Shown here: one piece after another, positions 9,956 to 56,987 of the stretch
Position numbering within the stretch: the stretch's first letter is position 1
Layout: the number at the start of each line of letters is the position of its first letter
NCBI RefSeq assembly: GCF_910592395.1
Contig: NC_088318.1
Location: 13,020,349-13,084,348, forward strand
Length of the DNA: 64,000 nucleotides
Reading direction: 5' to 3'
DNA from: Lineus longissimus
Taxonomy: Eukaryota > Nemertea > Pilidiophora > Heteronemertea > Lineidae
Program-made: the position numbers and the translations under genes
The notes under the pieces: model-generated
Told to the model about the DNA's origin: nothing
Seen by the model: only the letters and a program-made list of their open reading frames with translations
Databases searched by the model: none

Positions 9956-12354
9956 ATGGCTGCCTCCATGTCAAGGTGAACCGGCGGGAATTTTTACTTT
10001 TGTGATGTTATAAACACTTATTTCAGGGACTTTTCTGGATATGCTTTGCAATGAACAATCATAAGATCCCAGAGTAGTCAATAGATCTGTTGGAGCATCT
10101 AGGCATCACATTTTTAGCTCACCTCTTAGCAGAGGTGAGCTTATCCCATACCGTGGCGTCCGTCGTCCGTCGTCGTCGTCGTCGTCGTCGTCGTCCGTCG
10201 TCCGTTAGCAGGGCACGTTTCGTAACTGTTAGAGCTATTGAGTTGAAACTTGGTACACATGTACCCTTATGTAATGACACCTTGGAGACCAAGTTTCGGT
10301 CCGATTTGTTTCATGGTTTGGCCACCAGGGGGCCAAACGTTAAAAGTGAAAATATGCAATATCTCCCTTAATAGTAGTCGGGAAATTTTGAAAAAAATAT
10401 GGTAGGTACTTCTAGCAAAGGTGCATCATATATCCTCCGGGTTTTTGATTTGACCTCCTTTTCAAGGTCACAGAGGTCAAATGGTGTAAATTGGCCATTA
10501 GGATGTAACGATGGCACATTTCTAAACTGCAATGACTATTGATACCAAATTTGGTACACATTTACCCATTAGTCAGGTGATCTCAGGGACCAAAGTTTGG
10601 TCCAATATGATTCACCACTTGACCACCAGGGGGCAAAATCCAAAAACCTTAAAAATGTGATTATTCCTTAACTTCTTGCCCGATTGCCACCAATTTGATA
10701 TCATGGGTACATCTAACCACCATACAGTTTATGTCACACAGGTTTTTAATTTGACCTTCTTGTCAAGGTCACAGAGGTCAAATGGCGTAAATTCGCCGTC
10801 AGGCCGTAACTATGGCACGTTTCTAAACTGCAATGACTATTGATCACAAATTAAGTACACATGTACCCCTTGGTCAGGTGATCTCAGGTACCGAAGTTTG
10901 GTGCGATCTGATTTGCCGTTTGGCCTCCAGGGAGGGGGCCAAATCCTAAATTCTTCAAAATGCCATTATTCCTAGTAATGACTTGCCCGATTGGCACCAA
11001 TTTTATATCATAGGTACATCTAATTCTAACAACCATTCAATGTGTCACCCGGGTCTTCTTTGATTTGACCTACTTTTCAAGGTCACAGAGGTCGAATGTA
11101 CTGTAAATTGGCCATTTTGGGGAAATTGTAATTGCTTGGACCTACATCAAACCTAACACTACATGACACAATATCATGCTCTTTATCCATCTTTCCTCCA
11201 CATGAGGTGAGCGCAATGGCCCTGGCCATTTCATTCAAAATATTTTGGATTTATTCATTTCAGGTTGCTCTCTCCTGGTAACTGGACTCATCTTATGAAA
11301 ATATCCAGAATGACACAACAGATATTGCAGCGAAAAGTCTATCAAATTCAAATAAAGGTGAGAGCATTTTATCTGACAATCTGTATCAATCATCAATCAT
11401 GTATTTTTGGTTTTGTCTGGTTAGTGGTAGTAGTCATTCAGTCAAAAGACGAGAATGTAACAAAGCAGAGGATGGACCAACATGAGTTGAAAACATAGTG
11501 CCGTAGTGGAACAAGAAATTGTATAGAAACGGCCCATTTGGGACCACCTTTCGGTGACTTCATGTATCACTATCAAACTGAAATACTTGGTTGCTGCCAA
11601 TTATAGATTGGTCATTTCTAATCCATTTTGATACTTTTTCCAGGTCCAGCCTATCCACAGAACAAGCCTATCTACTGTCTGCAGAGGTCCAATCATGTTT
11701 GGAAGATATCATATGACCAGTCGTCAGTCTTTCGACATTCAACTCCGTCATATCGTCTCGAGAGTTTCAAAGAAAAAATTCACAGCTCAGAACAAAAAAG
11801 ACGGTATCCCTACGGACTATATACTAGTATACAACGCTAGCCTAACAAGTAATATGTATTACTGCAACATAATTTTACACGTTATTGCCAGCTTAGCTAT
11901 ATTACTCATAGTAAAAAATTCATATGAATACTACCAAATAAAGAAGAAGTTCAACATTTTCGAACCACCTTTGTTAACCTGGATTCTTTCAGGTGTTGTG
12001 GCCATGATATTTTTATTCTGTTGCCGTGGGCTTGCTAGAAGGATGCTGCTTCGTATATACTACAATGAGACGTCTGACACTTTCCGAGCTGTCTGTATAA
12101 GTGGTAATAGCATCACTCGTAAAGTAATCGAATTCACACCGCAGGATGTGCTGCAGAAAGACATTACAGGATACATGAAACATTTCTTTGGAAATCTGAT
12201 GATTTACGGCCGAGCATACACAGTTGAGGACCGGGATTTCCGAAGTCCGCATTATTATAATCATATGATGCAATGGGAGAAGCCAAAGACTGTAGAGTTT
12301 GATGATCATATTGACAGTATCTTCAGAAATAGACCACCGAAAGATCGGATGTGA
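9956..12354 (+). CDS. TMEM70: TMEM70-like mitochondrial inner-membrane assembly factor
   Basis: TMEM70 assists assembly of mitochondrial respiratory complexes, mainly ATP synthase. Exons 9956-9975, 11264-11357 and 11644-12354 join in frame to 274 residues (vertebrate TMEM70 is about 260). The start ATG has a strong context (aacATGg) and is the first ATG in its frame. The N-terminus (MAASMSRLL..) is basic and poor in acidic residues, as in a mitochondrial presequence. Two hydrophobic segments follow DYILVYNASLTSN: IILHVIASLAILLIV and LLTWILSGVVAMIFLFC. Next comes RIYYNETSDTFRAVCISGN, matching the post-membrane part of the TMEM70/TMEM186/TMEM223 superfamily. The C-terminal region with DRDFRSPHYYNHMMQWEKP resembles TMEM70 most. 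TMEM186 is the alternative. Intron 1 contains a ~1.1 kb repeat. Confidence 0.75.
10112..11230 (+). mobile_element. ~1.1 kb repetitive element with terminal hairpin and three internal ~300-bp units
   Basis: It begins with the hairpin agctcacctct..agaggtgagct, then a GTC-rich microsatellite, then three to four diverged units of about 300 bp. Each unit has a 'ttggtacacatgtaccc'-like segment, an 'accaccagggggc'-like segment and 'tcaaggtcacagaggtcaaatg'. It ends near aggtgagcgcaatggccctggcc, echoing the start. No ORF of transposase size is present, so it is non-autonomous. Elements of this look are widespread in marine invertebrate genomes (recollection). It fills most of TMEM70-like intron 1. Confidence 0.75.
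10156..10205 (+). repeat. GTC trinucleotide microsatellite
   Basis: Runs of gtcgtcgtc broken by gtccgtc near the left end of the 1.1 kb element. Confidence 0.9.
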
Positions 12355-13117: not shown

Positions 13118-13123
13118 TTTATT
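13118..13123 (-). terminator. Polyadenylation signal AATAAA, SVEP1-like gene
   Basis: TTTATT on the plus strand, about 245 bases past the stop codon at 13367; the only canonical signal seen in a suitable position. Confidence 0.65.
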
Positions 13124-13366: not shown

Positions 13367-14646
13367 TCAGAAATACTCTCTCTGTAATTTCTCTTTCTCG
13401 TGCAGTCGGAGTATTCGTTCTTCCTCTTGTCGATAAGGTAGCTGCGGCAGTGTACGCGCCTTTGGGTTGAAGACCGGTGGTGGGCGTTTTGGAAGCTCAA
13501 GGGTTGGAATGACCGTTTTTAACGGAAGGATACCCATATAAATATCATTGTTAGAGAGTCCAGCTCCCACAGTTTTGTTTCTCGCCTCTTTGGAGATACT
13601 AGCCCCACTTGTATTTATTTGTTTCTCTACACAATCTTGCCTCGTCTCTTCAAAAATTGGCAGCAGGATATCATTCACATCAAACACAGCATTTTCCCGT
13701 CCATTTTGATTCCTCTTTAACCTTACACGATTAATCCTCGGGCTTGTTTTGCCAATATTCCGTAAACTCTCAAAACTACGTTTCAGACTATCTCTAGGGG
13801 AGGTCTTCTTTAACGATGTAAGACTCGCAGAACTTATCTTTAAATTGTCACTGGATGCAGACTTGCTGCCTTCATTATTGAGACTTTCTCGGCTTAGACT
13901 GATAATGATTTGTCCGTTAAGATTCTCATAACTATCATCTGGACTTGGAGTTGTCTGATGAGAAATACTTGATTCGCCCCCAGAGCTTCTTTTGCATTCA
14001 ATTGCAAGGTTATCACTCTCACATGGAGAACTAGATGGATACTCGAACGAACAGAATCCTGTATTAGGTAAACGTCGCTTATTTCTGGCAGAACTCATTC
14101 CAACGGGTTCTAGGTAATCATCTTCAAATGCAAGATTTTCCTGCCCAGCACCAGAAACGTTCAAATCTCTTCGTGTTTCTGATGGGACGTCACCTTTGTT
14201 TTGATCCACACCTGATTTTGGTCGTTCTTCTGCTGGTACTGTGCCCCTCAGGGGATGAGCTTGTGACATTCGTTTGAAGAAACTATTATTCCTCTCAAGA
14301 TCTGCCCTGGTGGTGACGGCATATGGTGTTGGCTCGTAGTTGATGTCAGCATAGACATGCTCTGAAAATGGGATTGCTATATAAATTATCTTGGCACATA
14401 ACAAGATTTATGGCAGCCTTGCTAACTTTAAGAGAAATAGAAATCCTTGATGCCTTGTTAAATGGAAGTAACACACCATAGAAGCACTCATCTTTTTCTG
14501 TGATGTAGTAACCTGCATATCCTCTATCATAGATAGATTCATCCTTACCCTCAAATTGTTGTCGTACATGAACATCATCACCAGGGTCAGGCTCAAATGC
14601 TGTGTTGGAGATCGAAGAAAGGACAACATCACCATGATACGGTTTC
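13367..14646 (-). other. Cytoplasmic tail exons with tyrosine and proline motifs
   Basis: Exons 14549-14646 and 13367-14361 encode most of a ~380-residue Ser-rich hydrophilic tail. Candidate signalling sites: YADI, YEPT, YLEPV, YENL (the YxN form preferred by Grb2 SH2), YMGI, and proline-rich KRPPPVF and RTLPQLPYR. The C-terminal stretch (EEERILRLHEKEKLQREYF) is charged and probably helical. No kinase or other folded domain was recognised. Confidence 0.8.
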
Positions 14647-17600
14647 CTGAAACAGCGAGTCACAGAGCTTAGAAAGTCACAGCACTTTTGGGATAGGTCT
14701 TGTAATGCATCCGTTTGGGACAGGTCCTGTAATACATTTGGGCTGAAATACATCTGACTTACTAGAACACCAGTATGCTGACACCTCCACCTGTACAACT
14801 GATATTATTGGCAACTCTCGCTTGAGAAGAGCTTGTCAGACCTACTGTTAAAGGCCACTATGCCGTTCGTGTTAATTGTACTTGCTTGTGGCTAAGATAA
14901 ATAGGAATAAACAATGCCAAAGTGCAGTTGTTATGTAAGCAAATTTGCTGAAACTTTACATTTGTAGTATGTCTACAATACAGTACTGTTGAAATTCATA
15001 TTCAGTCCCTATTCATTCAAATGGACATTTTCAAATTTTAATTCAAGTTCAATTTTCACATTTTTGAACAAACAGAACAGGCCTTTAGGGCTCTTCAACA
15101 GACACTTGAAACAAACTTGAGTGCGCACTAATATATTGATTGATTACTAGGATCAGGGTAGATATACACGGAGTCAAATCTGGTGCTCACGATATTGAGC
15201 CAAGCTGGGATAGGTCTTGTTAAGAGCATCTGGTAAATATTTAAATCTCAAGCCTTCAGCTCTGTAAAACACTGACTTATTACATTTCAAATGAACATCC
15301 AGGGAGGCAGAAGTCGATCATCACTCTCGATTGGACAATCCACCAGTACTACTAACCCCACTATTTTGCTTTAGGAAATGCCTGAATACATAGGTCAGTC
15401 AGGTACAACATCTCACCTGTAAGTTTTACTCGTAGAACTCTTGCTTGCATACACCTGGCGACGTCTGTTCCTCACGACTGCTACAATCATGAGACACACT
15501 AACCCACAGACAATACAACCAGTAACAGCACCCGCCGTGATGTAAACTTTGTTGTCATCTCCATCTGGCACGGACATTTCTGTAAGAAGATTGTTTGCAA
15601 AATGTCAATCGGGGAATGCACATATAATTTATACGAGGGAAGTAAATGGCTGGCAAATTTTTCTTCCTTTTGGTATTGCAATCTTTCTCTGTGTACAGGT
15701 TTATGAGGATATTAGCGTGCCACTACAGTTGCGTGCCAATTTCATTTATTGGCTAGTGATTTGATCTACAGCCAGGGAAGAGAAGCCACTAACAGACTGC
15801 TGTGCACTTGTGCTTGCCCTGGCATGGGCGCCAGGTACAGAGAAATTTGAGCCTCTATGATATGACAAACTGGATTGGCAAAACTTTAAAACTTATACTT
15901 ACTCTCGATTTGAAGTTCAAATCCAAAATGTTGAGAAGCAGAAAGGTCCCCCAACTTCCCATTCTTGAGCTCTTCACGCAGAATACTCATCATGTCATCT
16001 TTGGTGATGGCAGGTTCGTCTTCATACTGGACGAGCTGGAGTGTGAAGTCCACCACGACACTGCCCTTCCTGAAAGTGGAAGGCCACTGCATCTTTGCTG
16101 TTGACAGGTTAAAGTCCACAATTTGCTTTTTCTCTTGCAATTTGGAAAGCAATGGCAAACTTAAAACACACCAAATTGTCAACTCGACTGCAATAACCTT
16201 TAGATTCTGATTTTTTCCTGCATCATGGCGTAATGAGTTCGAGGATGCCTGATGTCATTCTCCATTGACCACACTCAATCTGATTTATGCACATCGTAGT
16301 CACCATTCTGAACTGCGGTCACAAGACATCATGTCTTTAGACCCTCATCAGGAGCTGATTTCCAATAGAGGAATACAATCTACTATTTCCATCCATGTCA
16401 CCTTTAGGAAATACTCACCTGATACCATTGATCTGGATGGATATCTTGCTTGATCCTCTTTTCGCTAACGGCATATATACTTGATGAATCTGGAACACAA
16501 ATGGTTAAAAAATTTAAAACTGAATAAGAAAGTCTTAGTTAACCAAGACAGGAATGTTTGATTCAGACTTCGATAGTTCTTTTAGATGTTGAGCACGCAG
16601 ATGATATCTAATATGAATTTCAAGATCAACAGCTTGTTACATAGCCTTTTTGTAATGCAAGTTGTTTAGTCTTGAAGCAAATTTGACAACTCACTGCTTT
16701 CTTGAACTCGGAATCAAATTCCTTGCTCTCCTTCAGATTGTCGCTGTACACCATCAGTAAAGTTACAGTCACATCGTATGAAGTTTTAACTTTCTTTCTG
16801 ACGATGTCACAGTAGTCCCCTCCGAAACCATCAGGACAGCGACACCTGGTTGTGTTCCCATCAAACGAACAGATCTCTCCATTATGACAGGCAGTAACTC
16901 CACAGAGATCTGAATAGTAAAACGAATCGACATTAAAGTTGTGAAAAATGGCTCCATCCATTCCTTATCCCCCCCCCCCCTGTCAAAACTAACACTCCTT
17001 CTGCTTTCTGATTGTTAGGACAGCTATAACTTCAGGTCAGCACAGAGACTTCCAATACATATCTGCAGCTTCCCCAATGCAGAAACTCTGTACTTGTCAC
17101 AAGTGCTGGCCCAGCATCCTCTTGAGACACTACACCTTTAAGCACCATAGAACAGATACTAGCAATCTTACCTATCTCTGATGTTGTCTTCATGACACTT
17201 GTTTCCATCTTGACGGGCGTATCAGGTGTTGTACGGACAGGCGTCGGTTGTATCTCTGGAATAGAGCCAAGCAGGGTTGGCAGAACAGACGTCACCCTTG
17301 CAGTTGACGTCATGCCAGGGAATGAAGTTGGATTCGGCGTTGGTCTCGGTGTTGAACTTGAACTTGAAGAAGTAGAGGAACTTTGCATGTCAGGATTGGT
17401 TGTACTTGGTATATCCTGGGACTGCTGATGTATTTCAGATGTGGATTCAGCACCTTGATAGCGTAGGGTTGAAGATTCTAAGATCGTTATGTCAGACATT
17501 GAAGTGACAGATGGGAACATTTTTCGGACGAGCTCACAGTTTTCCCCGTCAAATATTTCAGGGCATAAGCAAGCATAATCACTGCTACTAAGATGCACAC

Positions 17601-20600
17601 AGGTTCCACCATGTTTGCACGGGTTGGAATCACAAATAGTTGGTAGTTCACAATTTGGTCCCCAGGTGATGTTTGGAATTTCAGGGCAACGGCACAAATA
17701 ACCAGTGTCATCTGCATTCGATAAGACACATGTGCCGTTATTCAGGCACGGAAAATGGTTACAGTTCGGTTTGTAGGAAATGGTACAGTATCTCCCGACC
17801 CAGGGGATGACGCATCTGCATTCAAATCCAGTCAAATCAGAGAGGCAAAGTCCACCATTTTGACATGGTTCACCCTCACAGAAGTTTATCCTCTCGTCAC
17901 ATAGTCGTCCATGAAATCCGGCAGGACAAACACAATGAAACATATCATGACTCTTGACACAGGTTGCGTCATTTAAGCATGGATTGCCTCGGCAGTCGTC
18001 ATAGTTTTTCTGACAGAAATCGCCGATGGTTGAAGCTGGACATAAACACTTGTAGCCTTCAGCCATTTTGATGCAAGTACCGTTGTTCAAACAAGGCATT
18101 GATCCGCAGAGGTCCACTTCATGGTAACAGTCCCGACCTGGAAAAGATTATTTCAATAAAGAAGTTGCTTATGACCTTGGGCAAATCACTTGACTAACTG
18201 ACTGTGATGTTAATGACTCACAAGGGAATATTAGTGGTAAATTTAAGTGACAGGCCCAGCTAATCAGCTAACCCTCCTCTTAAGGCCATTGCAAGAAGCC
18301 TGAGCACTCTAAACGTTAGAGGGTCTACTTGGGGATAAGATCAGTTGCAGATGGGTTCAAGAACTCGGTCAATGTCACAGCTGGACGAATGACTGCACTT
18401 TTCCAGTGGCAAATTCTACCCACCTAAATATCCTGGTAGGCAATTACACCTCCAATCATCCAGACCGCTGCCATCGACACACGTCCCATTGTTCTTGCAA
18501 GGAGATGGCTGACACTCGTCCAAGGGATTGTCACATCGGTCCCCCACCCAACCAGGCTGGCAGCTACTGCAGGAGTAACTCCCCAACAGATCTGTACATG
18601 CATGGTTCCCATCACAATGGTAGACATCGGGGTAGAGACACTCATCGACATCTAAAGAAAGTGAATTCCAAGAAAAATTTCTTTCAACTACAGTAGAATA
18701 TATCTTAGCTGAATTACAACTGGAGTAGCTATTGTAGATTATGAATAACAGCTCTCGATTACGGTTCAAAATGACTCTTCTTGTTACTAAAGCAAAGCAA
18801 CTCCTTCTCATCCAGGCGCCAAAACTACAACAAGAGAGTCTCAGGCACAATGACGTTTATGACAGAACCTCATTGCCTGTGCAAGCGGGAATTCGAGAGC
18901 CCATGCCAAGTCACATCACACAGGGAATGTTCCAGAGACTGCCCTGTCTCTCAATGCTGGTGCACAGCCAAACCCTGAATTCAGCCCCAGTTCACCACAT
19001 CCTCCCCATCAAAAAGTTGTCCAAACATAACAAATTCTGGAAAATAACCCCCTGTTTCTTAAACTTACCGAGACAAAAACTGTCTGTCCTCAGTTCGACC
19101 TCCCCCTTGATGCCTCTTGGGAAATCCAACCAAGACAGGACATTTCCTGGATGGGTTGTGCACGTCGTTCTATCACTAATGCCTCTGATTTCCTGGTCGG
19201 ATAGAATATCCTCAAACACTTGAACCTGTGAAAGCTCGCCAATGAACGATTCACGCCGATTGAAACTTCCACCGATCGAATCTTGTTCTTGTCCTGAAGT
19301 GAGGAATGGCAGGGATTTCAATTACACCATATCTAGACCATTTGATGACATATCCTGACATGATTTGTATCACTCGGTTTGTCGATTATAACAATTCTGA
19401 TGAATTCAAGGGCCAATAGTGGGTAGATGGATGAACAGGCTAGCCCGGTTAACCACCTGTGACATCACACAAGCGTTAATAATGTCCTTGTGTTTGACGT
19501 TATTTTGTTATCTCAAAACGGACAGACAGTATGAGCCTACCTTGTGAAGTTCTCCAGTTTATCTCCCAGACCATCATCAGTTAGTCCATGCAACATGCAT
19601 CATGCTCAAAGCAACATGCTAGAGCTTACCAAGGATAAACGACCCGCCACCTTCAATATGCGTATTACTTGCCAAGCCGGTTCCTTCCACTGCCAGCGTG
19701 CCATTGAGGTGGACTCGCCATAATCCTAATGTTCCTTCCCAGCTGATACACACATGATTCCAATGCCCATCATTGAGACGTAAGCCAAGGTGTGCAACTT
19801 CACCATTAACGAACAACTAGAGAAGAAGAAGATTATTACGATCATATTCTATAGAAGGGATGACAGGCATACAGGTAGCTTGACTGAAGAGAGTTGCTAA
19901 AATATCATATAGGTCTGAATCTCAACCAAGTACAGTGGAACCTCCCTTTGAGAACACCTCTCTAATCAGGACACCTCTCTATTAAGGACAAGACTAGTCA
20001 GATCCAAGCCTAAGGGTGTCCTTAATAGAGAGGATCGACTGTAGTCACACACATGCGCAAGGAGTCTAACCCAACAGCAGGATAGACAGTCGAAAAGGTA
20101 CTACTGCAATCTATCTACAACTTTTCAAATTACCCAGTACAATTACCTGGTCGCCATAGTCGTAGAGAGTAAAGACGTTGCTACTCTCAGCAGCTAACCA
20201 GTTACTGCTTGCACCGTAAGAGAATGGTGTCCCATAATTTAATTGGTCATGTGATCTCATCCAGAATGCAACAGTTATAGTTGTCAATTTCTCTGCCATG
20301 ATTGTCACAATAGCACAGTCTGTAATGCTCGGCTTCTTGAACACCAAGTCAAACTCCTTACTATAAGCTGTAAGTTAGAAGAAAGAGAAACATACCTTTA
20401 GGTGGGATAAAGTTTTATCAGAAGATATTGAAAACTTAAGCTATCAGTTACTTATTATGTTGTGCCCATGCTACATTTTGAATGAGATAATGCCATAACT
20501 ATCGACTGCGGTAAGTTGGCCGAGATGCGGTCAGTTGGCCAATTACCCAGTGCCAACATAGTTGCTGTTATTTACCAAACCAATTCTTTAATTGTTTTGA

Positions 20601-23600
20601 AGTCACTCATCTTGCATTACAGACACTTGAATTGAAATAATGACTTTTTTCATCGTTGATAAAATCTTAAGTTGGACATGCCTTTCAGGAGACTAAAATC
20701 ATACATAAGCTGTATCAATACATACTTAATTCACAATTCTTCCCAGCAAATCCATCATGACATCGACAATGGTAATCAGCGACATCATCAGCACATATCC
20801 CACCATTCAAACACGGCTGACTATCACATTCATTGATGGTGTTTTCACATTCTGGCCCAGAGTAGCCTTCCATGCAATCGCATGTGTGGGAAGTCCCTTG
20901 TGATTTGCAGGTTGCACCATTTTTGCAGGGGGTACCGATACAAGCATCTAGGATAGCCTCACAGTGTTCACCTAAACAGAGAGGAGATTAAAATTCCAAT
21001 CTTATGTGAGAATAATACGACTTCAATACTCTTATAAGCCAAAGCTGGCGCACGGGCCCTTTCATTAGGGAACTAGGTGACACTATGATAAACAAACTTT
21101 TATGCGGTGATGAAAAATCAAACTTACCAGCAAAACCAGGAAAGCACTCACAACGGAATCCACCCACAAGGTCAGTGCAGTTGCCATGGATACACACACC
21201 CTCTGTACAATCGTCCACATCATGGTCACAGTTTTGACCGCTGTATCCCATCGTGCAGTAGCAGGTGTAGTTGGCAATCGCGTCAACACAGGAACCACCA
21301 TTTCGACACGGAGCAGATTCGCACTCATCTACTTCAAAGTCACAATGTTCACCGGTATAGCCAGGTAAACATTTACAATTGTACCCATTGACCTCATCGA
21401 CACATGTAGCTTCATGTTGGCAGGGTGATGACATGCACTCATTGACCTCCGCAGAGCAGTCGTCATCGGTCCATCCAGCATCACAATCACAACTAAAGCC
21501 GCCTTTTCCATTGATGCATCGACCGTGTGGGCAGACGTTCTCTTGACAGTAGTCAATGTCTAAAAGAGACCAAAATACATAAGTTCCAATGAATTGAGAA
21601 ACTATCGGGCATCAAATTTCTCACACAATGAGCCTTAATTTACCAGTAGTATACTACAGTATTGAACTTCCACAAATAAATCGCAGTCACAATGACCTTG
21701 AGTGGGCATTGCTGAGTAACTGAAGGTAAGTCACCAAAAGTGTAAAGTTAATTTGATTTGCTCTCTGTCAATCATAGTCTCGCAAATATTCTGTCGGCAA
21801 AATGGTGGTTCAGATTTTGACAATTCCGCAGGCACGATTTAAAAAAACAACAAACTGACACCTACCTATACAAGAATGCAAACTGTCTGCCCCAATGTTC
21901 AAGGTCTCCTTCAGATCTGGACAGCTGTGACAGACCTGGGCACCAGGGTTTGGTTGGTACGTGTTGAAAGGACAGGGAACGCATGGCTCCAGACCTGAGG
22001 AAGGACTGTAATATCCTGGACGACATTCATCTAGAGAAGAACACTTAAAATTGAATTTTGCACGACCAATATAATGCCTCTTCATTTCCCATGTCTCAGT
22101 CAGTGTCAGAGCAACTGATGCATCGACTCATTACTATGGAATTCTCACACGCGAGTTCCTGAATGAAACCCTCTTGTCTCAACTTACTCTTGAATATTCA
22201 TACATTATGTGTAAAGAGCCAGGAGTTTTAGTTCAGTACATCTTGGGAAGAAACATACTAGCTGGGTTCTCACCCGAGATTGAATTTGGCATTGGCATGG
22301 TTGCCAGCAGTGTTAACTGCTTGGCTATATGACTCTTTCATAACTGGTGACTAACTGATTGAGTAACTGTCAAATGATTGATGAGGCAGACTGAAAACTG
22401 ATACACCAAGGAATATCTTTGTCTTACCGATACATTCGTAAGAAAAGCTTGCTCTGATACTGAGGGTCCCAGTTCCCGGTGGGCAACTGTGACATCTCTT
22501 AGCTCTGGACTCAACTTGATATGTCCCAAAGTCACAGGGATCACATGGCTCCAGACCCGTCACTGAAAATGTACCTGGTCGACATGGATCTGAAAGACAC
22601 AAGATGTAAAAGAAGTTTATTTTGCAATTTTGTGAAATTGCAACTTTTAAGCTCACTGCACTATTTAATTTGGTGTTTTTACTACCCCACTGTAACAGTA
22701 ATTTCTTTTTTGTGGCCAGATGTTTTTGCAAATACCGAAAACGTGAAAATAAAGGCACCCAAATAATTCCGGGTATTCAGTGTTTTGGTAGGCTACTCTC
22801 ATCATCATCATCGTAACAAGGTCAGAGGAATAATACTGTTGAATGATTAACTCAGGTTGAAGCAAGTTATTTCTCTGAAATAGACATGAAAAGAAAAGTG
22901 ACTCAGAAACTTCTTTAAGAAATGCTTACCAGAACAGTCTTCAAATGCAATAGCCCCAGGTCCCATTGTCATCTTCTTGTCCGGGCAGACTTCACACTCC
23001 GTACTTGCTTCCTCATCCTGGTAGAAACCAACTTGGCAGAGTTTGCAATCTACCCCATTGTGGTAGCTGCCGATAGGGCAGTTTACTGAAATGGATTAGA
23101 ATGAATTCCTTGAGTATTCATGTGACTTTGAAGAGAATCCCCACCATCCTGCAGCCCCCGTCCAGAGAGCCTGCATCCCAGGACAACTCAGGAGCAGCGG
23201 TAGCGCAGGTATTGCTTCTGACCATGGAGCAGCTGATACTGAGAATCAAATAGCTTGACTTAAACGATATAAACCCACAACCAATTGGGTTGAGAATTAG
23301 ATATCAACAAACGCCCTGATTATTCTGGCCCTTTTAACTTAACTAAAGAGACTCATCAGAAAGTTCTGTCTCTAAAGACTCAATTTCAGCACATGTGAGC
23401 ATAATAGTAGCTGGGATGAACTCACCACATCGTGCACTGTAATCCTCCAATACCAAAATCTGTCCAATTGTACAATTTGTCACAAACCCTACAGTCATAT
23501 TCATCCCGAGATCAGCGACAAGTTGAGCTGAAACGTTCACCCCAAGGCCTTCTTTGTTTACTTCATATTCAATATCCAAAAGTTTATACTTTAAATCCGT

Positions 23601-26600
23601 CTGCATTGTTTTGGTGATAGGAACGCTCGCGTCTGCTTCAGCCTCAATGGAGAATTCGACTAAAAATGTAACGTTTTCGTGTGCCGCGTCTTTTCCTGTT
23701 CCATCGTCTTTCGTTTTGTCGTCATCTTCAACTCCATCTCCGCCTTCTAGTCCATCTGCCACAGGACGAACAGACCTACGTGGCCTGTAGTGATAATCAC
23801 CTTCAAAGTATGACCTCTGACCCTGTGAATCTGACCTTTGACCTTCAGAATCACCATCCGATGGTTCATTTTCAAAAATGTGTTTCGTGACAGGCCCACC
23901 AGTTGTGTAAGATGGTGCTTCTCCATTCTGCATCAGGACATGTGACGGTAGACTCACGTGACAATGAACACGTACATCTTTTAAGTTACACTTGATATCA
24001 AGTTGGGTGCAAATACTGCTTGAATACGATGTCAACTTTTGCCAACTCATGATGCGAATATGCTCCTTGACTGTGACATCCAGACATGACCCGCCATAAT
24101 AATGATACTTCACCTCACCACGTAGTCTTGCACGCCCACTCCTGTACGTTCCTGGAAAAAAAGGTTGAGATGAATTATCAGATTATTGCACAGCTTGTTG
24201 GATAAAATCTTTGGTCTGTCCCACAATACCACTTGAATTGGTGAAGCTTCCAAGATAGATATATTCCTGGATATTCAGAGTTCTTTGAACAAGATTCAAA
24301 ATTGAATAAAATTCCCTGTCCCTGACTTCACTTCTATCAGGCTTTCTAAAGGCCCATCGCTTCAATAAATCGGCCATGTCAAGTTTTATTTTGAGCCAGT
24401 TCATTGCACAACAGGCATAAGCTTCTCAACATTAGTAACTCCAAACTCACGAGAACAATGAGGCCACTTTTCCATCCAATTGCCGTTGCTATCACAGTAA
24501 TAATAATCCGATGGTGGGAAAGCGAAATCATATTGTTCGTTACACATGACACTGCACTGCAAGAGAAACTGGGCACCCTTGTGGCAAACAGCTACACCAT
24601 TTTGAGGCTCTGGCAATCTTTTACAAGATTTTGCTGAAAGTAAAGATGGGACGAAAATCAGCTGAGGTGTTATAAAACTGATGAGTAAGTTGTCTTCGCA
24701 CTTCACCTCTGTAGTCCGTTCCAAGAAAAAATGGCACTCCACACTCCATGGCTAACTTGAGTGCAACTCGACAGCTCAACTAAGTATAAGTAACAAGTGC
24801 TGACATCAAACCCTCCCATACGAAGAAAGTTAAAATGGGTCTCCAAAGGGCTTTTTAATGCTCATATGAAATTCGCTCTCAACCAAATATAACTTACCCG
24901 TGACATTGACAGAAAACTGGCAGACGACCTCCTGGAAACCATCAGGGTAACAATGCACTTGATGAACGCCTAAAGAAAACCTATCACCGCTACCCCTGGA
25001 GCAGTGATAGTTGAGCGTCTCGTTGTCCTGGTCCAAGAAGATGGGATCAGGCCAATGGACAGTCATGGATTGGCTGGTGACATTGGCAATGGTGATGTTT
25101 GCGGGGCAGAATATGACTTTTGCATTACGCCCTAGAGAAAGAAGAAATGTTTTTATGAATCAGAATGATTTAAAACTGAACTCTACATGTAGGCTACTGT
25201 TTATTTGTACTCAATTAAAATGGACAGTTTTATTTTTCAGAAATTTTAAGAAATCGCAAAAAAACTGTATTGCAAAATGGGTGATAAGGGAACTTATTTC
25301 ATTTTTCCTCGCCTTACCTATGACATTGATTTTCCTGTTACACTGAGCCTGGTTACCAGCAGAATCTCTTACAACATACTGCAACACGTGGAGACCAACC
25401 AAGAAGATGTTCGACACCTGCCCATTCACCTGATACGTGAAATTATACGAGTTATCACGTATCGTGGGTTTGTTGCTTTGCCAATGGAAGATGGTTGTGT
25501 TCTGACCATGCTTGGTGTATGCGATGACGTCATCTGGACACGTGATAGCTGGAGGCTGTGTGTCTGAAATCAAGAAAGAAACGCACAATGAGAGTATAAT
25601 CACGATGACTGCATCTACCAAGTAGAGTGTGAGGCTCGGCAAATCATGACCAAGCTTTCTTACCGTGGCAGACAAGATCCTTCCCTCTCCATTTCCCGCC
25701 CTCCCCACACGTTTTTATCCAACGGTCAACGTCATTGCTGTGCTGCTTGATCGCTCCAACAAGTGGAAGTTGAAACCCGTCGCGACATATCACACTGCAA
25801 TGCTTGTTGTATGGCTGTCTGACTTGAGTGCAGGAGTTTGGGCTGGTCAACGTGTAGCTGATGGCCGGTAGAGGGGGACACCTGATGTCTGAAAGAGGTT
25901 CAAGAGATGAGTGGCTTGTTGGCAGTGAGTCAAATTCTGAGGCAAATAAACCAAACTGAAGCCTAACAGTTTTGCACAAAAACACCTTGGAAGAAGAACT
26001 CCTCCAAAGTGCAGAGTGAATACTGATGAAGATACAGACTCACCTATGCATTTTGCTGGAGTGCCACTCCACCTCGCATGCTCCCCACAAGTCCTATCAG
26101 CATCACCAAATACCATCTGTCCAGGCTTACAGGCAACCCGTGCTATGCTTCCAAACGTGGTGGTGCCATTGACATACTGCACATTGCCATCCGTGCTAAG
26201 TTCTTCAATTGTTCCACAGTCAACAACTGAAAAAAATATTAACTTACTTCTTAGGCATAACTTACTTTTACGGACCGGTATGATTTGCCATGATCACTTT
26301 TATGACTCAAGCTTTGTCTCCACTGCAATGGCAAGATGAATCACTCACAGGAATCACTCACTGAATCAAACTTAGCCCATGTGATTACCAATTTCACCCA
26401 CAAGCTCTTGCCTATAGTCACCCTTCTAAGTTGTAGTTGTTTGATTTCAAGTGTGGCATTAGACTCACCTTCACATTCCGGAGGTTCTCCCGACCATGAT
26501 CCATTTCCGTGACAAACCAGTGCAGGGAAACTATCAAGGCGGTAGCCTCGGTTGCAACCAAAATGACAGGAATTATGGGCGGTGTTACGGCATGAGACAC

Positions 26601-29361
26601 CAGTGTTTGCCACCTCAGTCAGGGTGGCGCCGGTAGCATGAAACTTGTAACCATTCTTGGGGGGTTGGAGGGCTGGACAGGTTATTACTAGAAATGGATG
26701 AAAGGAGAATATAAGGTTTGGTGGAGACATGGAGCATGGGTTTGTACAGGTGAACAATCAGACATGACAGATGACTGGAGAAAGGCAAGCTGTCCATACA
26801 AAGCTCATTAAGGCGAGCAAACCATAAACTTAAACACAGTATTTTCATTGATGATACTTACTCGTACAAGGTGCCCCAGGGTACGCCTGGTAGTAAGGTG
26901 GGAAACAGCCACATGATGAGGCAGCTACCCCGCTCGTGGTGCTGTTGGCACTGCAGGGAATGCATCTTGTCGGGGCCAGGTCAGGTTTGAAATAGCCCAG
27001 TCTGCAGGCTGAAAGTAAGTTTCAAGAAATGTTGAATTAACTTCATTTCGGAATTTGAATCTTTTTACAATTGACTTTATTCAATGTCTATGTGTATATC
27101 GAATTCAATACGGCAGAACCTCTCTATCAAGGACATCCTTGGGACTGATAATTAAAAGTGCTGTCTTTAGAGGGATGTCCTGATTAAAGAGGTCAAATTC
27201 AAAGGAAACAACCAATACCAGACCAAACCTAAGTGTCCTTTATATTGAGAGGGTCACTGGGTGGTTTGATAGAGAGGAGTTCGCTAAGGGAGGTTCCACT
27301 ATGTAGAATAAATCTGAAAGGGTTAATTCTATGAACAAGCTTTCATGGTGTAATTCATTTGTCATGAGTCAAGTGTTTTGGGTGGAGTCCTGTTATGATA
27401 TGAATCTTGATATAATTAAGTTACAGACTTCGAGGTTAATTAGCTGGGAATGACATGACCCATATTACAGATAACGATACAAGTTTTCATTATAGATTGT
27501 TGAGCTGTGAGTCTTAGTGCTTTTGTACAATATCAGATGAGTCATTTTCATTCATGGTTTAACCCTTTTCCAAATGATGCCAATCTTCCTAAAATCATTT
27601 CTGCAAAAGCATGCTCCAACTGTTCTACTTTGAAACCTTATAGAGACCAAACCAGTTTCACTTTCAGTGAACAGGTAAAGTGAAATTCTACGATAAGATT
27701 TTTCTTGACACTTCTCAGATTTCATCAATATCTTTTTGTTGTCCTTGAGATGCCATAGACAAACTTTGGTCCCTGATGTTACTCAGGCTGTAGCCCCCCC
27801 CCCCCCCTCATCCTGTGTAATGACCACCAATCTTGTGACAAAGAGAAGAATATTGAACTGTTTAAATCTGATGAAAGACGACAATGCAACTAAAATATCA
27901 TGAAAACTTTAATTTTTCGTTGTGTGACTTATCTGTAATTCATGATCAAAACAAACCTTTGCACTTGTCACCATTCCACTCATAGCCTGGTTGGCAGACG
28001 CACTCATAATCACCTGTGCCAGTGCCACACGTGCACAAAGCATTTGGTCCACATGGCTGAGGGCAGGTGAAGTCAGGCGAGGGGGTCCAAGCATCTTCCT
28101 GCAGATCTGAATGAACAGAGTATCAAATTTAATGGGGTTATATTTATAAATTATGACATGACATAATTCCCGACATGAGAACAATCAACAGAGGTCATAC
28201 TGAGAACATGTTGAAAATATGGACTAATTGGGGTTTTGGCGGTCACAGCTTGGCCCCCAAACATGCAAATTTAAGGGGAGCCATGCAGTGCTCATATTCC
28301 AAAATATAAGTACAGTATAGGGTATGATAAGTAGAGTGGTCACACTTTTTGATGAAGAGGCACCCCTTTGCAAGAATCCTTCTGCAAAAGTACCCCATTT
28401 TCTCTTGGATTGTACAGCCTAGTTGTGAACTCAAAATGACCCCTCCTCTTTCCGAAGACAATTTGACCACGCACAAAGCCCCTGAGGTATTTGACAGGGG
28501 GAGGGGGGTAATGGTTGCCTTTTGCTATCGTCCTCTGGTCCTCGAGGTTAGGAGAACCTTCCATTCAGGAAAGTAGAGCCGCCTGGGATGGCAACTTGAC
28601 CTGGGGCAAATGTCAAAAGAGGAAGAAGAAAGCCCTGACTCACCTCCATGTAGAGATCTAGCAAGTTGATGAAAGAGTTGGAAATCAGGGATGAGGAATG
28701 TATGATTTTGGCTCGGGTACGCAATCGACTCCAATTCCGTCAACTTGGCATTTTGGATCCCGAACGCATAGATCTCGATCTGCGGACCGTAATCTTGCTC
28801 AGGCCAATCTGAGGACCATTCTAGTGACAGGATATCATGGGCAGCACTTATGGGGGGTGGGCCGACATTCGATTTGCCATCGGTCAGGATAAAGATGGCT
28901 TTTTTCGCATCTGATCTTGAGTTGACGAGAATGTCCCTTGTTGCTCGTAGGGCATTGTACATTGCTGTGTATCCATACGGATCGAGTTTGGCTATATTTG
29001 TTCGTATTTGGCGATACAAGGCACATTTGTTTTCACGTGATGAATTAAGCCCATTGTAATGCACGGTGTAATGCGTGCTGAATGTTACTATGGCAACGCG
29101 GGTATTGTCCGCATCCACAATGAAATGTTCGAGAAGATTCGTAACAAAATCCAACATGGAATCCCAGCCTCTCTTAGGAACAGATCCAGATCGATCAACA
29201 ACGAACACCAGGTCAATTTTCGATGTTGTGTTGTATCTTTGGAAGAAGTTGGCGATTAGTTCCTGGCTTTCTGATAAGATGGTGCTATCATTGTGGAATG
29301 CATTCGTCTGTAGTATCATGGAAATGAAAAGGAATGGCAGGAGGAGGGATGGAATCATCAT
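13367..29361 (-). CDS. Membrane-anchored SVEP1-like multidomain protein (~2,575 residues, 26 coding exons)
   Basis: Exons in order: 28644-29361, 27957-28106, 26862-27008, 26469-26687, 26044-26226, 25664-25888, 25318-25563, 24898-25131, 24451-24633, 23426-24151, 22930-23085, 22428-22589, 21866-22030, 21128-21559, 20726-20971, 20147-20367, 19630-19816, 19069-19293, 18424-18651, 17172-18137, 16695-16909, 16419-16489, 15903-16069, 15417-15579, 14549-14646 and 13367-14361. Lengths sum to 7,728 nt, a multiple of three, and every junction is phase-compatible. The domain order VWA, ephrin-receptor-like, sushi x3, HYR x2, sushi, GCC2/GCC3, EGF x6, pentraxin is that of SVEP1, a secreted adhesion protein. 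Downstream it departs: EGF modules, Ser/Thr/Pro stalk, SEA, one membrane span and a cytoplasmic tail replace SVEP1's sushi array. Likely a type I surface receptor; ligands cannot be read from sequence. Confidence 0.88.
15417..15579 (-). other. Transmembrane segment exon
   Basis: After VPDGDDNKVY comes a single hydrophobic helix, ITAGAVTGCIVCGLVCLMIV, then a basic stop-transfer sequence (AVVRNRRRQVY). This gives a type I membrane orientation. Confidence 0.9.
15903..16909 (-). other. EGF module and SEA domain with G-SVVV motif
   Basis: Exon 16695-16909 carries an EGF (CGVTACHNGEICSFDGNTTR) and the SEA start (VTVTLLMVYSDNLKES..EFKKA). Exons 16419-16489 and 15903-16069 complete it (INGIRKGSVVVDFTLQL). 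The phase chain 0-2-1 selects this frame. GSVVV is the sequence at which MUC1-type SEA domains break their own backbone between Gly and Ser, leaving a non-covalent heterodimer. Confidence 0.82.
16969..16980 (+). repeat. Poly-C tract (12)
   Basis: Uninterrupted C run in the intron between the stalk exon and the SEA-containing exon. Similar runs at 27794-27807, 36882-36893, 49053-49064 and, as poly-G, 55640-55655. Confidence 0.95.
17172..18651 (-). other. Second EGF array (seven modules) and Ser/Thr/Pro-rich stalk
   Basis: Exon 18424-18651 starts with VDECLYPDVYHCDGNHACTD. Exon 17172-18137 adds five EGFs (e.g. CRGNPCLNDATCVKSHDMFH), then a mucin-like stretch of about 100 residues rich in Ser, Thr and Pro (SSSTSSSSSSTPRPTPNPTS). 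The stalk should be heavily O-glycosylated and hold the EGF array away from the membrane. SVEP1 has sushi domains at this point instead. Confidence 0.88.
19069..20367 (-). other. Pentraxin domain (three exons)
   Basis: Exons 20147-20367, 19630-19816 and 19069-19293. The second contains HVCISW, a match to the pentraxin signature HxCxSW, followed by EGTLGLWRVHLNG. The third resembles the SVEP1 pentraxin (GQEQDSIGGSFNRRESFIGE..FVGS-like..WLDFPRGIKGEV). The first junction is phase 0, one of only four non-phase-1 introns in the gene. Confidence 0.9.
19933..20041. mobile_element. MITE-like element, copy 2 (SVEP1-like intron)
   Basis: Starts TA-CAGTGGAACCTCCCTT and ends AGGATCGACTG-TA. At 109 bp it is internally shortened compared with copy 1. 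The interior has 'ctctctattaaggaca' and its inverse. Confidence 0.75.
20726..21559 (-). other. First EGF array (six modules)
   Basis: Exons 21128-21559 and 20726-20971 encode six consecutive EGF modules. Several start with D-V/E-x-E-C and have the N-x-G-x-C pattern of calcium-binding EGFs (VDECESAPCRNGGSCVDAIA, INECDSQPCLNGGICADDVA). Six EGFs before the pentraxin domain is the count I recall for SVEP1. Confidence 0.9.
21866..23085 (-). other. Three GCC2/GCC3 (ephrin-receptor-like) cysteine modules
   Basis: Exons 22930-23085, 22428-22589 and 21866-22030 each encode a C-x(2)-G-x-Y/F..C-x(2)-C module: CPIGSYHNGVDCKLCQVGFY, CRPGTFSVTGLEPCDPCDFG and CRPGYYSPSSGLEPCVPCPF. These repeats precede the EGF array in SVEP1. 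Confidence 0.85.
22259..22332. repeat. SINE-like fragment, second copy
   Basis: gggttctcacccgagattg..catggttgccagcagtgtta is a diverged version of 2410-2475 and 52932-52994. Located in an SVEP1-like intron. Confidence 0.4.
23426..24151 (-). other. Long linker exon with acidic segment and furin-type site
   Basis: A single 726-nt exon carries about 242 residues between the last sushi domain and the GCC2/GCC3 modules, the position of the unassigned region in SVEP1. It has a basic RPRRSVRP stretch matching the furin pattern RX(K/R)R, then an acidic low-complexity run (GGDGVEDDDKTKDDGTGKD). I recognise no domain family. Confidence 0.75.
24451..26687 (-). other. Sushi x3, HYR x2, sushi block
   Basis: One domain per exon. 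Sushi/CCP: 26469-26687 (CPALQPPKNGYKF..), 26044-26226 (VDCGTIEELSTDGNVQY..), 25664-25888 (RCPPLPAISYTL..) and 24451-24633 (SCKRLPEPQNGVAV..). HYR: 25318-25563 (PAITCPDDVIAYTKHGQNTT..VVRDSAGNQAQC) and 24898-25131. The order is the same as in SVEP1. These are adhesion and interaction modules without catalytic function. Confidence 0.88.
27111..27302. mobile_element. MITE-like element, copy 3 (SVEP1-like intron)
   Basis: Starts CGGCAGAACCTCTCTATCAAGG after TA and ends GCTAAGGGAGGTTCCACT. Same interior as copy 1, with more substitutions. Confidence 0.75.
27794..27807 (+). repeat. Poly-C tract (14)
   Basis: Uninterrupted C run in the SVEP1-like intron between exons 26862-27008 and 27957-28106. Confidence 0.95.
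28644..29361 (-). other. Exon 1 of SVEP1-like gene: signal peptide and VWA domain
   Basis: MMIPSLLLPFLFISMILQTNA is a good signal peptide. The VWA domain starts at KIDLVFVVDRSGSVPKRGW. The metal-site residues are intact: DRSGS (DxSxS), the Thr in PYGYTAMYNAL and the Asp in FILTDGKSN, so divalent-cation ligand binding is plausible. The 5' leader continues to an acceptor at 29387. Confidence 0.92.
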
Positions 29362-42414: not shown

Positions 42415-43290
42415 AGTGTCACATCTCCTGCCAGTAAATTATGCCTCCTACCTACTCTGATTGAGTAGGGTGGTGAGAGTCTTCTCTCATTGATGATTTG
42501 GTGGCCATTAGTACCACTATATGAGTGGTTGGCTGTGTCACATCTCCTGCCAGTAAATTATGCCTCCTACCTACTCTGATTGAGTGGGGTGGTGAGAGTC
42601 TTCTCTCATTGTCGATTTTTGTGGCCATTAGTACCACTATATGAGTGGTTGGCTGTGTCACATCTCCTGTCAGTAAATTATGCCTCCTACCTACTCTGAT
42701 TGAGTGGGGTGGTGAGAGTCTTCTCTCATTGATGATTTTGGTGGCCATTAGTACCACTATATGAGTGGTTGGCTGTGTCACATCTCCTGTCAGTAAATTA
42801 TGCCTCCTACCTACTCTGATTGAGTGGGGTGGTGAGAGTCTTCTCTCATTGATGATTTTGGTGGCCATTAGTACCACTATATGAGTGGTTGGCTGTGTCA
42901 CATCTCCTGTCAGTAAATTATGCCTCCTACCTACTCTGATTGAGTGGGGTGGTGAGAGTCTTCTCTCATTGTCGATTTTTGTGGCCATTAGTACCACTAT
43001 ATGAGTGGTTGGCTGTGTCACATCTCCTGTCAGTAAATTATGCCTCCTACCTACTCTGATTGAGTGGGGTGGTGAGAGTCTTCTCTCATTGATGATTTGG
43101 TGGCCATTAGTACCACTATATGAGTGGTTGACTGTGTCACATCTCCTGCCAGTAAATTATGCCTCCTACCTACTCTGATTGAGTGGGGTGGTGAGAGTCT
43201 TCTCTCATTGATGATTTGGTGGCCATTAGTACCACTATATGAGTGGTTGACTGTGTCACATCTCCTGCCAGTAAATTATGCCTCCTACTA
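42415..43290. repeat. 120-bp tandem satellite, about seven copies
   Basis: Units align exactly 120 bases apart (e.g. catctcctgtcagtaaatta at 42661, 42781, 42901, 43021). Copies vary mainly in 'gatgatttt/gtcgattttt' and gcc/gtc. Because 120 is divisible by three, one minus-strand frame stays open for 189 codons; I regard that as a by-product, not a gene. Confidence 0.93.
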
Positions 43291-55838: not shown

Positions 55839-56987
55839 TTACCCAACCATGGTTCTCTTTCGTCCCCGTAAACGCACTTCGTCCAATTTTTTCATGACCT
55901 CCACAGCACCTCCTTTACTGTGTTTTACATAACTTTTAAGCACATGGTTGAAAAGTTTCTCAGTGTTAGGATGAGTACTAAGAAAAGCCCTTTCTAAGAC
56001 GTACAAATCCACACCTTTGTCCTCTGCAACATTCTCAATATAACTCAGTCCAAAGTCTATCATGATCAGTTCTAAGTTCTGGAGATTAACAGCAGTTTTT
56101 AGTAGCATGTTCGACGTAGTCATGTCCCCGTGAATAATGTTTTTCTCATGCATTTTCCCAACAATAGCTCCAATCTTTTCTGCCAGTGTTTTGAGTTTCT
56201 CAACATAAGTCTCTGGATGCAGTTTCTGAATGCTAACGATTTGGTCCCTAACTGTAATCGATTCCTCGATGAATTCCATGTAGATCTTGTTCGTCTCCAA
56301 ATCCACAAAATAGACAACTGGAGTTCTGATGCCTGAAATGCAAACCAGAATTACATACATACCGGCTTAGGTCATGCATCCTGCGACAATAGGGGTTAAT
56401 GTTTGCTTCTCCGGCACTGCACACAAACTTATGGCCATGAGACATTAACCATCACTGGCATGGCCGAGCGATGAACTGCGGAAAATGCGGTGGTTGTCCT
56501 CAATTGACCATTGTCAGTGACAGACTTCCAGGTGTGGTGGTCGGTCCTATAAAGACCAGAAATTGATCGGTAACTGGTCATAGTTTATCGCCCAGTTCGG
56601 AGTTCCCTTTACCTTGGCCTTTTGGGTTACGGTTGTGATATTTATTCAGATAACATGATTCGTTTGGCGCGCGAGCCTCCGCTCCTGGCCCCATCCCAAT
56701 ATCGCTCCAATATTGGATTCTGATTATCCATCAGTAAAATTGGTGATTATTGCGTTAGGTTTTAGACTAAGACATAGAAACGGATTCTTACCATTCGCTC
56801 GGCATCTCATGATGCATCTAACTTCAGATTTTGTTCTCTGTGCAGTCAGTGATTTGTCCAGAGCAGGATGTCTGTAGGTTTTTGGGAATCTTTCCTTGAT
56901 AATGCAAGGTAAACCGTATAATTCTGACTTAAATATCCTTCCCTCAGCTCCTTGCTTCAACAACACGTTATTGGCATCGTTTGCCAT
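55839..56987 (-). CDS. TP53RK: TP53RK / Bud32 / PRPK, KEOPS-complex atypical kinase
   Basis: Bud32-family kinase/ATPase of the KEOPS complex, which makes the universal t6A modification on ANN-decoding tRNAs; the human protein can also phosphorylate p53. Two exons, 56792-56987 and 55839-56332, join at phase 1 to 229 residues (human 253). Motifs in order: glycine-loop equivalent [12 protein letters not shown], catalytic Lys in [30 protein letters not shown] with the helix Glu, [10 protein letters not shown] catalytic loop, IDFGLS metal-binding Asp, and the C-terminal [13 protein letters not shown] characteristic of the family. All key residues are present. It starts at the ATG at 56985-56987. 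The next gene on the same strand starts about 0.8 kb past its stop; a poly(A)-like TTTATT sits 24 bases after the stop. Confidence 0.96.

What the first reader, a model, noticed from the sequence alone, without database searches (positions are those of the whole stretch)
13367..29361. A SVEP1-type ectodomain fused to a SEA domain, membrane span and signalling tail
The first ~1,700 residues keep the domain order of SVEP1, a secreted protein. The gene then lacks the long sushi array and instead has eight EGFs around a Ser/Thr/Pro stalk, SEA, one membrane helix and a ~380-residue tail with tyrosine motifs. I know of no described receptor with this architecture. It could be the ancestral or a lineage-specific form that anchors or signals where vertebrate SVEP1 acts as free matrix.
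Basis: partly seen in the sequence, partly recalled or inferred. Interest (0 to 1): 0.88.

Follow-up and report, generated by a model that had tools for sequence, protein, structure and literature searches.

The report
Membrane-anchored paralog of SVEP1
A ribbon worm gene encodes a giant cell-surface protein built like the secreted matrix protein SVEP1 but anchored in the membrane; the same form turns up in molluscs, an annelid, amphioxus and an acorn worm, so it looks like an old animal receptor family hidden under SVEP1-like and Notch labels.

Summary
A 26-exon gene on the minus strand (29361-13367) encodes 2575 aa: signal peptide, VWA, EGF, ephrin-like, 3 sushi, 2 HYR, sushi, furin-site region, 3 ephrin-like, 6 EGF, pentraxin, 8 EGF around a Ser/Thr/Pro stalk, SEA-like domain, one TM helix, 382-aa tail. 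A database prediction from Lineus (P0001) equals residues 652-2575 letter for letter, so pentraxin, SEA and TM lie in one predicted protein.

The interpretation needs changing. The same genome also holds an SVEP1 with a sushi array (C4). TM forms from molluscs, Owenia, Branchiostoma and Glandiceps make one clade (100/100), apart from a secreted SVEP1 clade (100/100) with vertebrates and protostomes; two lineage-specific groupings are rejected. So it is an ancient bilaterian paralog, neither a replacement of SVEP1 nor a nemertean invention, and distinct from insect Uninflatable. Which clade branched first is open.

The tail is conserved: Y-[AED]-[DE]-[LI] 31-58 residues after the helix in 14 of 14 genes, in 0 of 85 other TM tails; an RxLPxLP-type motif in 9 of 14, 2 of 85. 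Cleavage and signalling are inferred.

The parts
28644..29361 (-). exon 1: start Met, signal peptide (aa 1-21), VWA (aa 50-233)
   Evidence: signal peptide read from sequence
26862..28106 (-). exons 2-3: EGF and ephrin-like Cys-rich module
   Evidence: module types read from cysteine pattern, ephrin-like supported by 2 stretches in the first 1062 aa
25664..26687 (-). exons 4-6: three sushi domains
   Evidence: exon 4 aa 342-410; exon 6 at lax threshold; exon 5 by cysteine pattern
24898..25563 (-). exons 7-8: two HYR domains
24451..24633 (-). exon 9: fourth sushi
23426..24151 (-). exon 10: region between sushi 4 and ephrin-like modules, no Pfam family
   Evidence: single-sequence fold uninformative, mean pLDDT 31
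23775..23786 (-). furin-type RPRR site (aa 891-894)
   Evidence: RxKR/RxRR in this region in 49 of 52 rows
21866..23085 (-). exons 11-13: three ephrin-like modules
20726..21559 (-). exons 14-15: six EGFs
   Evidence: number counted by eye
19069..20367 (-). exons 16-18: pentraxin domain (aa 1398-1608)
17172..18651 (-). exons 19-20: seven EGFs, then Ser/Thr/Pro stalk (aa about 1890-2006)
   Evidence: number counted by eye
15903..16909 (-). exons 21-23: eighth EGF and SEA-like domain (aa about 2045-2157)
16051..16065 (-). GSVVV, putative SEA self-cleavage between G2104 and S2105
   Evidence: published consensus GSxxV with x = V or I
15417..15579 (-). exon 24: juxtamembrane stretch, TM helix, basic start of the tail
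15473..15547 (-). TM helix (aa about 2169-2193)
   Evidence: hydropathy
13367..14646 (-). exons 25-26: cytoplasmic tail and stop codon
14342..14353 (-). conserved tail motif YADI (aa 2248-2251)
13436..13456 (-). RTLPQLP, class I SH3-ligand-like motif (aa 2547-2553)
13118..13123 (-). AATAAA, candidate poly(A) signal about 245 bases after the stop

Best explanation
The gene belongs to an ancient bilaterian family of membrane-anchored SVEP1 paralogs. Most likely working: the protein is cut by a furin-type protease in exon 10 and cleaves itself at G|SVVV in the SEA domain, but its pieces stay together at the cell surface. The VWA, HYR, sushi, EGF and pentraxin modules bind matrix or a neighbouring cell. 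The membrane stub carries a tail whose YxxL/I-type tyrosine and SH3-ligand-like motif recruit SH2, SH3 or adaptor proteins. Pulling or ligand binding may free the large ectodomain and change the state or fate of the stub. Shown here: gene structure, domain order, family, phylogeny, motif conservation. Inferred: both cleavages, surface location, partners, phosphorylation, mechanics and signalling.
For: Gene model and identical predicted protein from residue 652 on. Same architecture in other phyla. TM clade 100/100 with protostomes and deuterostomes, apart from secreted SVEP1. SEA profile match with shuffled control; GS[VI][VIL]V.[FYLVI] in 4 of 273 returned proteins (780,310 residues), all four TM members in the SEA position; a looser pattern gives 10 hits, the same 4 plus 6 elsewhere. 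Furin-type site in 49 of 52 rows; polydom is reported to be cut into 115-kD N and 270-kD C parts when secreted (passage of PMC10281526), which fits that place. Y[AED][DE][LI] in 14 of 14 tails and 0 of 85 other TM tails; [RK]x[LIV]Px[LIV]P in 9 of 14 against 2 of 85.
Against: No expression, localisation or cleavage data. Pfam SEA stays under its cut-off, only 3 of 8 pieces match it even at E up to 1, and no solved SEA structure was matched. The self-cleavage motif is absent in Mizuhopecten, P0121, Argonauta, P0021 and P0022, and the five gastropod-type rows (P0017, P0136, P0147, P0151, P0154) show no SEA-like stretch by eye, so SEA cleavage cannot be essential in every member. The tail pattern was written after seeing the alignment. 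SH3-like motif missing in 5 of 14. YxxL/I is also an endocytic sorting signal (recalled).
Confidence: 0.6

Rival explanations
1. Tethered matrix anchor without signalling: the ectodomain links cells to matrix, and the tail motif YxxL/I is an AP-2 type sorting signal that sets surface turnover.
For: YxxPhi fits YADI, YAEL, YEDL, YEDI, YDEI (meaning of the motif recalled); no Pfam domain in the tail.
Against: Always an acidic residue before the hydrophobic one, an SH3-ligand-like motif in 9 of 14, and further tyrosine motifs in several tails suggest more than sorting.
Confidence: 0.3
2. One reading: ancestral or lineage-specific SVEP1 that replaces the secreted form.
For: SVEP1 order in the first 1,608 residues.
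Against: Second, sushi-array SVEP1 in the same genome; two clades each spanning protostomes and deuterostomes; p-AU 4.6e-5 and 1.1e-75 against the two alternative groupings tested. An anchored common ancestor of both clades is not excluded.
Confidence: 0.04
3. Two adjacent genes joined by mistake (SVEP1-like part and SEA/TM part).
For: Phase 1 introns on both sides would let a false join stay in frame; P0001 lacks exons 1-7.
Against: P0001 joins exons 8-26; relatives from other phyla carry both halves in one predicted protein; 417-base intron 18 without poly(A) signal.
Confidence: 0.02
4. Ortholog of arthropod Uninflatable.
For: Uif rows share HYR, sushi, ephrin-like, EGF and a LamG/pentraxin-like block, and most have a TM helix.
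Against: Three Uif rows (with P0237) form their own clade at 100/100, outside a fork of 29 rows with SVEP1 and TM-SVEP1 (98/95); their domain lists hold no VWA and their tails differ.
Confidence: 0.03

Closest known systems
SVEP1/polydom (secreted; vertebrates and invertebrates)
   Same: VWA, sushi, 2 HYR, sushi, furin-site region, ephrin-like, EGF, pentraxin in the same order; neighbouring clade in the trees
   Different: No long sushi array, where Tie1 binds polydom (20th CCP; passage of PMC10281526); instead EGFs, SEA-like domain, TM and tail
Drosophila Uninflatable (Uif)
   Same: Large single-pass TM protein with EGF, HYR and sushi modules
   Different: CUB, C-type lectin and FA58C modules (passage of PMC3340373), no VWA listed, no SEA listed, other tail; separate clade
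Cnidarian polydoms (Nematostella, Hydractinia)
   Same: Polydom core with sushi, HYR, ephrin-like and pentraxin (passages of PMC12549020)
   Different: PAN/Apple, FA58C and CUB modules; treated there as matrix proteins; anthozoan rows are the outgroup in my trees
SEA-bearing TM proteins (MUC1, IMPG2)
   Same: SEA with GSxxV (for the motif) before one TM helix (recalled)
   Different: Ectodomain unrelated (recalled); SEA here is divergent and below the Pfam cut-off
Notch
   Same: EGF-rich, furin-type site, TM, tail (recalled); a Branchiostoma member is named NOTCH2 in the database
   Different: No LNR or ankyrin repeats found

Membership tests
SVEP1/polydom family in the wide sense | VWA, sushi-HYR-HYR-sushi, ephrin-like, EGF, pentraxin in order | tested here: met
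SVEP1/polydom family in the wide sense | Groups with SVEP1 in a tree | tested here: met
   inside the SVEP1 superfamily fork at 100, 98/95; exact order of its clades open
SVEP1 proper (secreted) | Long C-terminal sushi array | tested here: not met
   the C4 gene meets it
SVEP1 proper (secreted) | Secreted, no TM helix | tested here: not met
SEA domain family | Profile match to PF01390 above cut-off | tested here: not met
   18.4 against 26.4 bits, E 0.0025, best Pfam match
SEA domain family | Profile-profile match to known SEA domains | tested here: met
   E 1.6e-5, probability 79%; best of 60 shuffles 0.0042
SEA domain family | SEA fold and self-cleavage | not tested
   domain spans exons 21-24 and was not folded; motif GSVVV present
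Uninflatable | Clusters with insect Uif | tested here: not met
Notch receptors | LNR (PF00066) and ankyrin repeats | tested here: not met

The most novel reading that the evidence does not exclude
An undescribed bilaterian receptor family: a furin-cut, SEA-cleaved surface paralog of SVEP1 that reads matrix tension or a ligand and signals through a conserved tyrosine and SH3-ligand motif; vertebrates kept only the free matrix paralog, which now works through Tie1, PEAR1 and integrin.
Probability: 0.35. Interest if true: 0.85.

Novelty: new variant of a known kind. Interest (0 to 1): 0.72.

Why it matters
SVEP1 is a vascular and lymphatic matrix protein whose receptors PEAR1 and Tie1 were reported only in 2023 (titles in the listing). 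An old membrane-anchored paralog with a conserved tail says that a very similar ectodomain is, in many animals, part of a surface protein. It makes testable what the shared ectodomain binds, and warns that SVEP1-like or Notch labels in invertebrate data can hide a TM protein. I saw no paper on it in the listings (1 of 1 listed; 25 of 29; 15 of 113; 12 of 877; 3 of 3; 7 of 7), which cover open-licence PMC papers only.

Tried and rejected
Single-sequence AlphaFold of exon 10 gave pLDDT 31, no use. PDB search with the SEA part found EGFs and weak chance hits, and with the SEA profile nothing. A Pfam SEA search of the whole genome finds six matches, all on C6, none in the window, where the domain is split over exons. 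Two-gene, lineage-specific and Uif readings were rejected (see rivals). PEAR1 binding region on SVEP1: not found in the passages searched. My notebook said that the C4 sushi array is one exon from C4:22745921; a recheck shows 4 stops near its start, and the long open frame is C4:22746323-22752137, 1938 codons. Absence of the TM form in vertebrates and arthropods was not tested as such: 25 SVEP1-named long rows that I took for vertebrate (names often cut) have no helix, but the searches are limited by shared words and list at most 120 hits.

Full report
What is there. The minus strand of the window, spliced from 29361 to 13367, gives a single open frame of 2575 aa in 26 exons; each of 25 introns is GT-AG and 21 are phase 1. 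Pfam confirms VWA, Ephrin_rec_like, Sushi, HYR, EGF and Pentaxin. The tail has no Pfam family. One hydrophobic helix follows a SEA-like region; the tail is 382 aa.

One gene, not two. P0001, named SVEP1-like and Lineus in the database listing, where the species is cut off (L. longissimus is my inference), equals residues 652-2575 of my model letter for letter, starting at a Met inside exon 8. So the splice junctions of exons 8-26 that I chose by eye are met by an independent gene prediction; whether transcripts back that prediction I could not see. Exons 1-7 are joined on splice sites, frame, a signal peptide in exon 1 (by eye) and full-length relatives such as P0003, P0006, P0008 and P0023. 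Intron 18, the point named for refutation, is 417 bases long with no AATAAA or ATTAAA.

Relatives. Three protein searches (the cap) gave 273 protein ids. I scanned 52 rows, the model plus 51 chosen ones, for hydrophobic helices past residue 300: 15 have one, that is 14 genes since P0001 is the same gene as the model. Names, several cut in the listing and completed by me: Lineus, Mizuhopecten, Argonauta, Owenia, Aplysia, Lymnaea, Bradybaena, Bulinus, Branchiostoma lanceolatum (labelled NOTCH2), Branchiostoma, Glandiceps; P0021, P0121 and P0154 show no organism. Three more rows (P0004, P0010, P0122) fall in the clade by ectodomain but show no helix; P0127 looks alike but is partial and was left out of the trees.

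Two paralogs in one genome. HYR and Pentaxin searches of the genome each find just two places, the window and C4 (lower bounds). On C4, from about 22730620 to 22754427, tblastn with P0131 (a secreted-type oyster row, name cut at Saccos) shows VWA through pentraxin, then a sushi array, then terminal EGFs up to residue 3578 of 3589. The array holds an open frame of 1938 codons (C4:22746323-22752137), with 28 sushi-like motifs in its 1883 matched codons; the 4 stops before it lie in what looks like an intron. The last matched frame stops 85 codons on, after the EGFs and without a helix, and the scan of the next 6 kb of that strand printed no strongly hydrophobic frame. VWA pieces of C4 are 59-63% identical to P0131 and 32-39% to the window gene. 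Mizuhopecten likewise has both kinds (P0003, P0050) and Aplysia too (P0151, P0012).

Tree. From VWA, sushi, HYR, ephrin-like and pentraxin blocks (EGFs and exon 10 left out): a quick tree of 52 of 53 rows has the 16 TM-type rows as one clade at 100. A careful tree of 39 of 53 rows (14 left out by me as near-copies, long or partial) has TM, 13 rows, at 100/100 and secreted, 17 rows, at 100/100. Forcing protostome TM with protostome secreted rows costs 334 log units (p-AU 4.6e-5); forcing deuterostome TM with vertebrate SVEP1 costs 318 (p-AU 1.1e-75). These groups were named after a first tree, which weakens the test formally. Adding Uif and other rows (40 rows) keeps TM, 9 rows, at 100/100 and puts Uif outside. 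Not settled: whether TM and secreted SVEP1 are nearest to each other (87 in the quick tree, unresolved), since crinoid, Ptychodera, Diadema and one spider row form further branches without a helix in the scans made; and the order of the deuterostome TM rows (85/60). The simplest reading is a duplication before protostomes and deuterostomes split. Whether the ancestor was anchored or free is open, as Uif and some cnidarian rows also have helices.

SEA domain. The best Pfam match of the Lineus piece is SEA at E 0.0025, below the curated score; 3 of 8 pieces match SEA at E up to 1. The 8 pieces are 7 membrane-proximal ones and one internal SEA-like stretch of P0021. Profile comparison with three SEA domains of the same genome: E 1.6e-5, probability 79%, aligned over GSVVV; 60 shuffles reach 0.0042 at best; with the motif masked 4e-4. 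GS[VI][VIL]V.[FYLVI] occurs in 4 of 273 returned proteins, all TM members at this place: Lineus, B. lanceolatum, Glandiceps, Owenia. A looser pattern has 10 hits, those 4 and 6 in other proteins, among them Notch-type rows. Autoproteolytic SEA domains carry GSxxV with x V or I (passage of PMC9478142); Owenia has L at one x. Mizuhopecten, P0121 and Argonauta have inserts there; P0021 and P0022 are too divergent near the membrane to judge; five gastropod-type rows show no such stretch by eye.

Cleavage in exon 10. An RxKR/RxRR site lies between sushi 4 and the ephrin-like modules in 49 of 52 rows (a 53rd, the approximate C4 protein, lacks this region by construction; P0159, P0091 and P0028 have none), including 16 of 16 rows of the TM clade in that alignment. 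Polydom is reported to be cut into 115-kD and 270-kD parts when secreted (passage of PMC10281526). That furin does it, and in this gene, is inference.

Tail. Y[AED][DE][LI] stands 31-58 residues after the helix in 14 of 14 genes; per-tail shuffles reach it in 0.25 to 2% of cases; 0 of 85 other TM proteins from the searches have it within 70 residues of the helix. [RK]x[LIV]Px[LIV]P is in 9 of 14 and in 2 of 85; in 8 of 10 protostome-type tails it lies within 31 residues of the end. The patterns were written after seeing the alignment, and the 14 are related, so these are descriptions, not tests. That RxLPxLP is a class I SH3 ligand and YxxL/I an SH2 or AP-2 motif is recalled.

Literature. Uif is a TM protein with EGF repeats that can antagonise Notch (title and passages of PMC3340373; the term SVEP1 does not occur in its main text nor in those of PMC12867482 and PMC13178913). 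SVEP1 is a PEAR1 and Tie1 ligand (listing). I saw listings and passages only, not whole papers. None of the titles and abstract starts listed names a TM SVEP1 paralog.

Judgement. The thing is real and conserved over three protostome phyla and two deuterostome phyla. Its receptor role is likely but unproven.

Noticed in passing
11632-12354 (+): Intronless reading frame of the TMEM70/TMEM186/TMEM223 family (Pfam E 4e-5), tail to tail with the SVEP1-type gene.
   Followed up: partly
55842-56366 (-): Kinase-like frame matching Kdo, RIO1 and EcKL models; reads like TP53RK/Bud32 (name recalled).
   Followed up: partly
42416-43288: Tandem array of 7.3 copies of a 120-base unit, 97% matches.
   Followed up: no
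43895-45115 (-): 407-aa frame rich in Asp/Asn repeats, no Pfam family.
   Followed up: no
G000:C6:18033463-18060233: Cluster of six SEA matches; the three best carry GSVIV, GSVIV and GSVVI and at least one stands beside Thr/Pro-rich repeats; mucin-like gene(s).
   Followed up: no
exon 10, 23426-24151, and relatives: Furin-type site in 49 of 52 rows of the SVEP1 superfamily, cnidarian rows included; may explain the known cut of polydom.
   Followed up: partly
P0021, P0022 (P0022 named Branchiostoma): A SEA-like stretch also sits between the ephrin-like modules and the EGFs.
   Followed up: no
P0008: The Branchiostoma lanceolatum member is labelled NOTCH2 in the database, a misname.
   Followed up: yes
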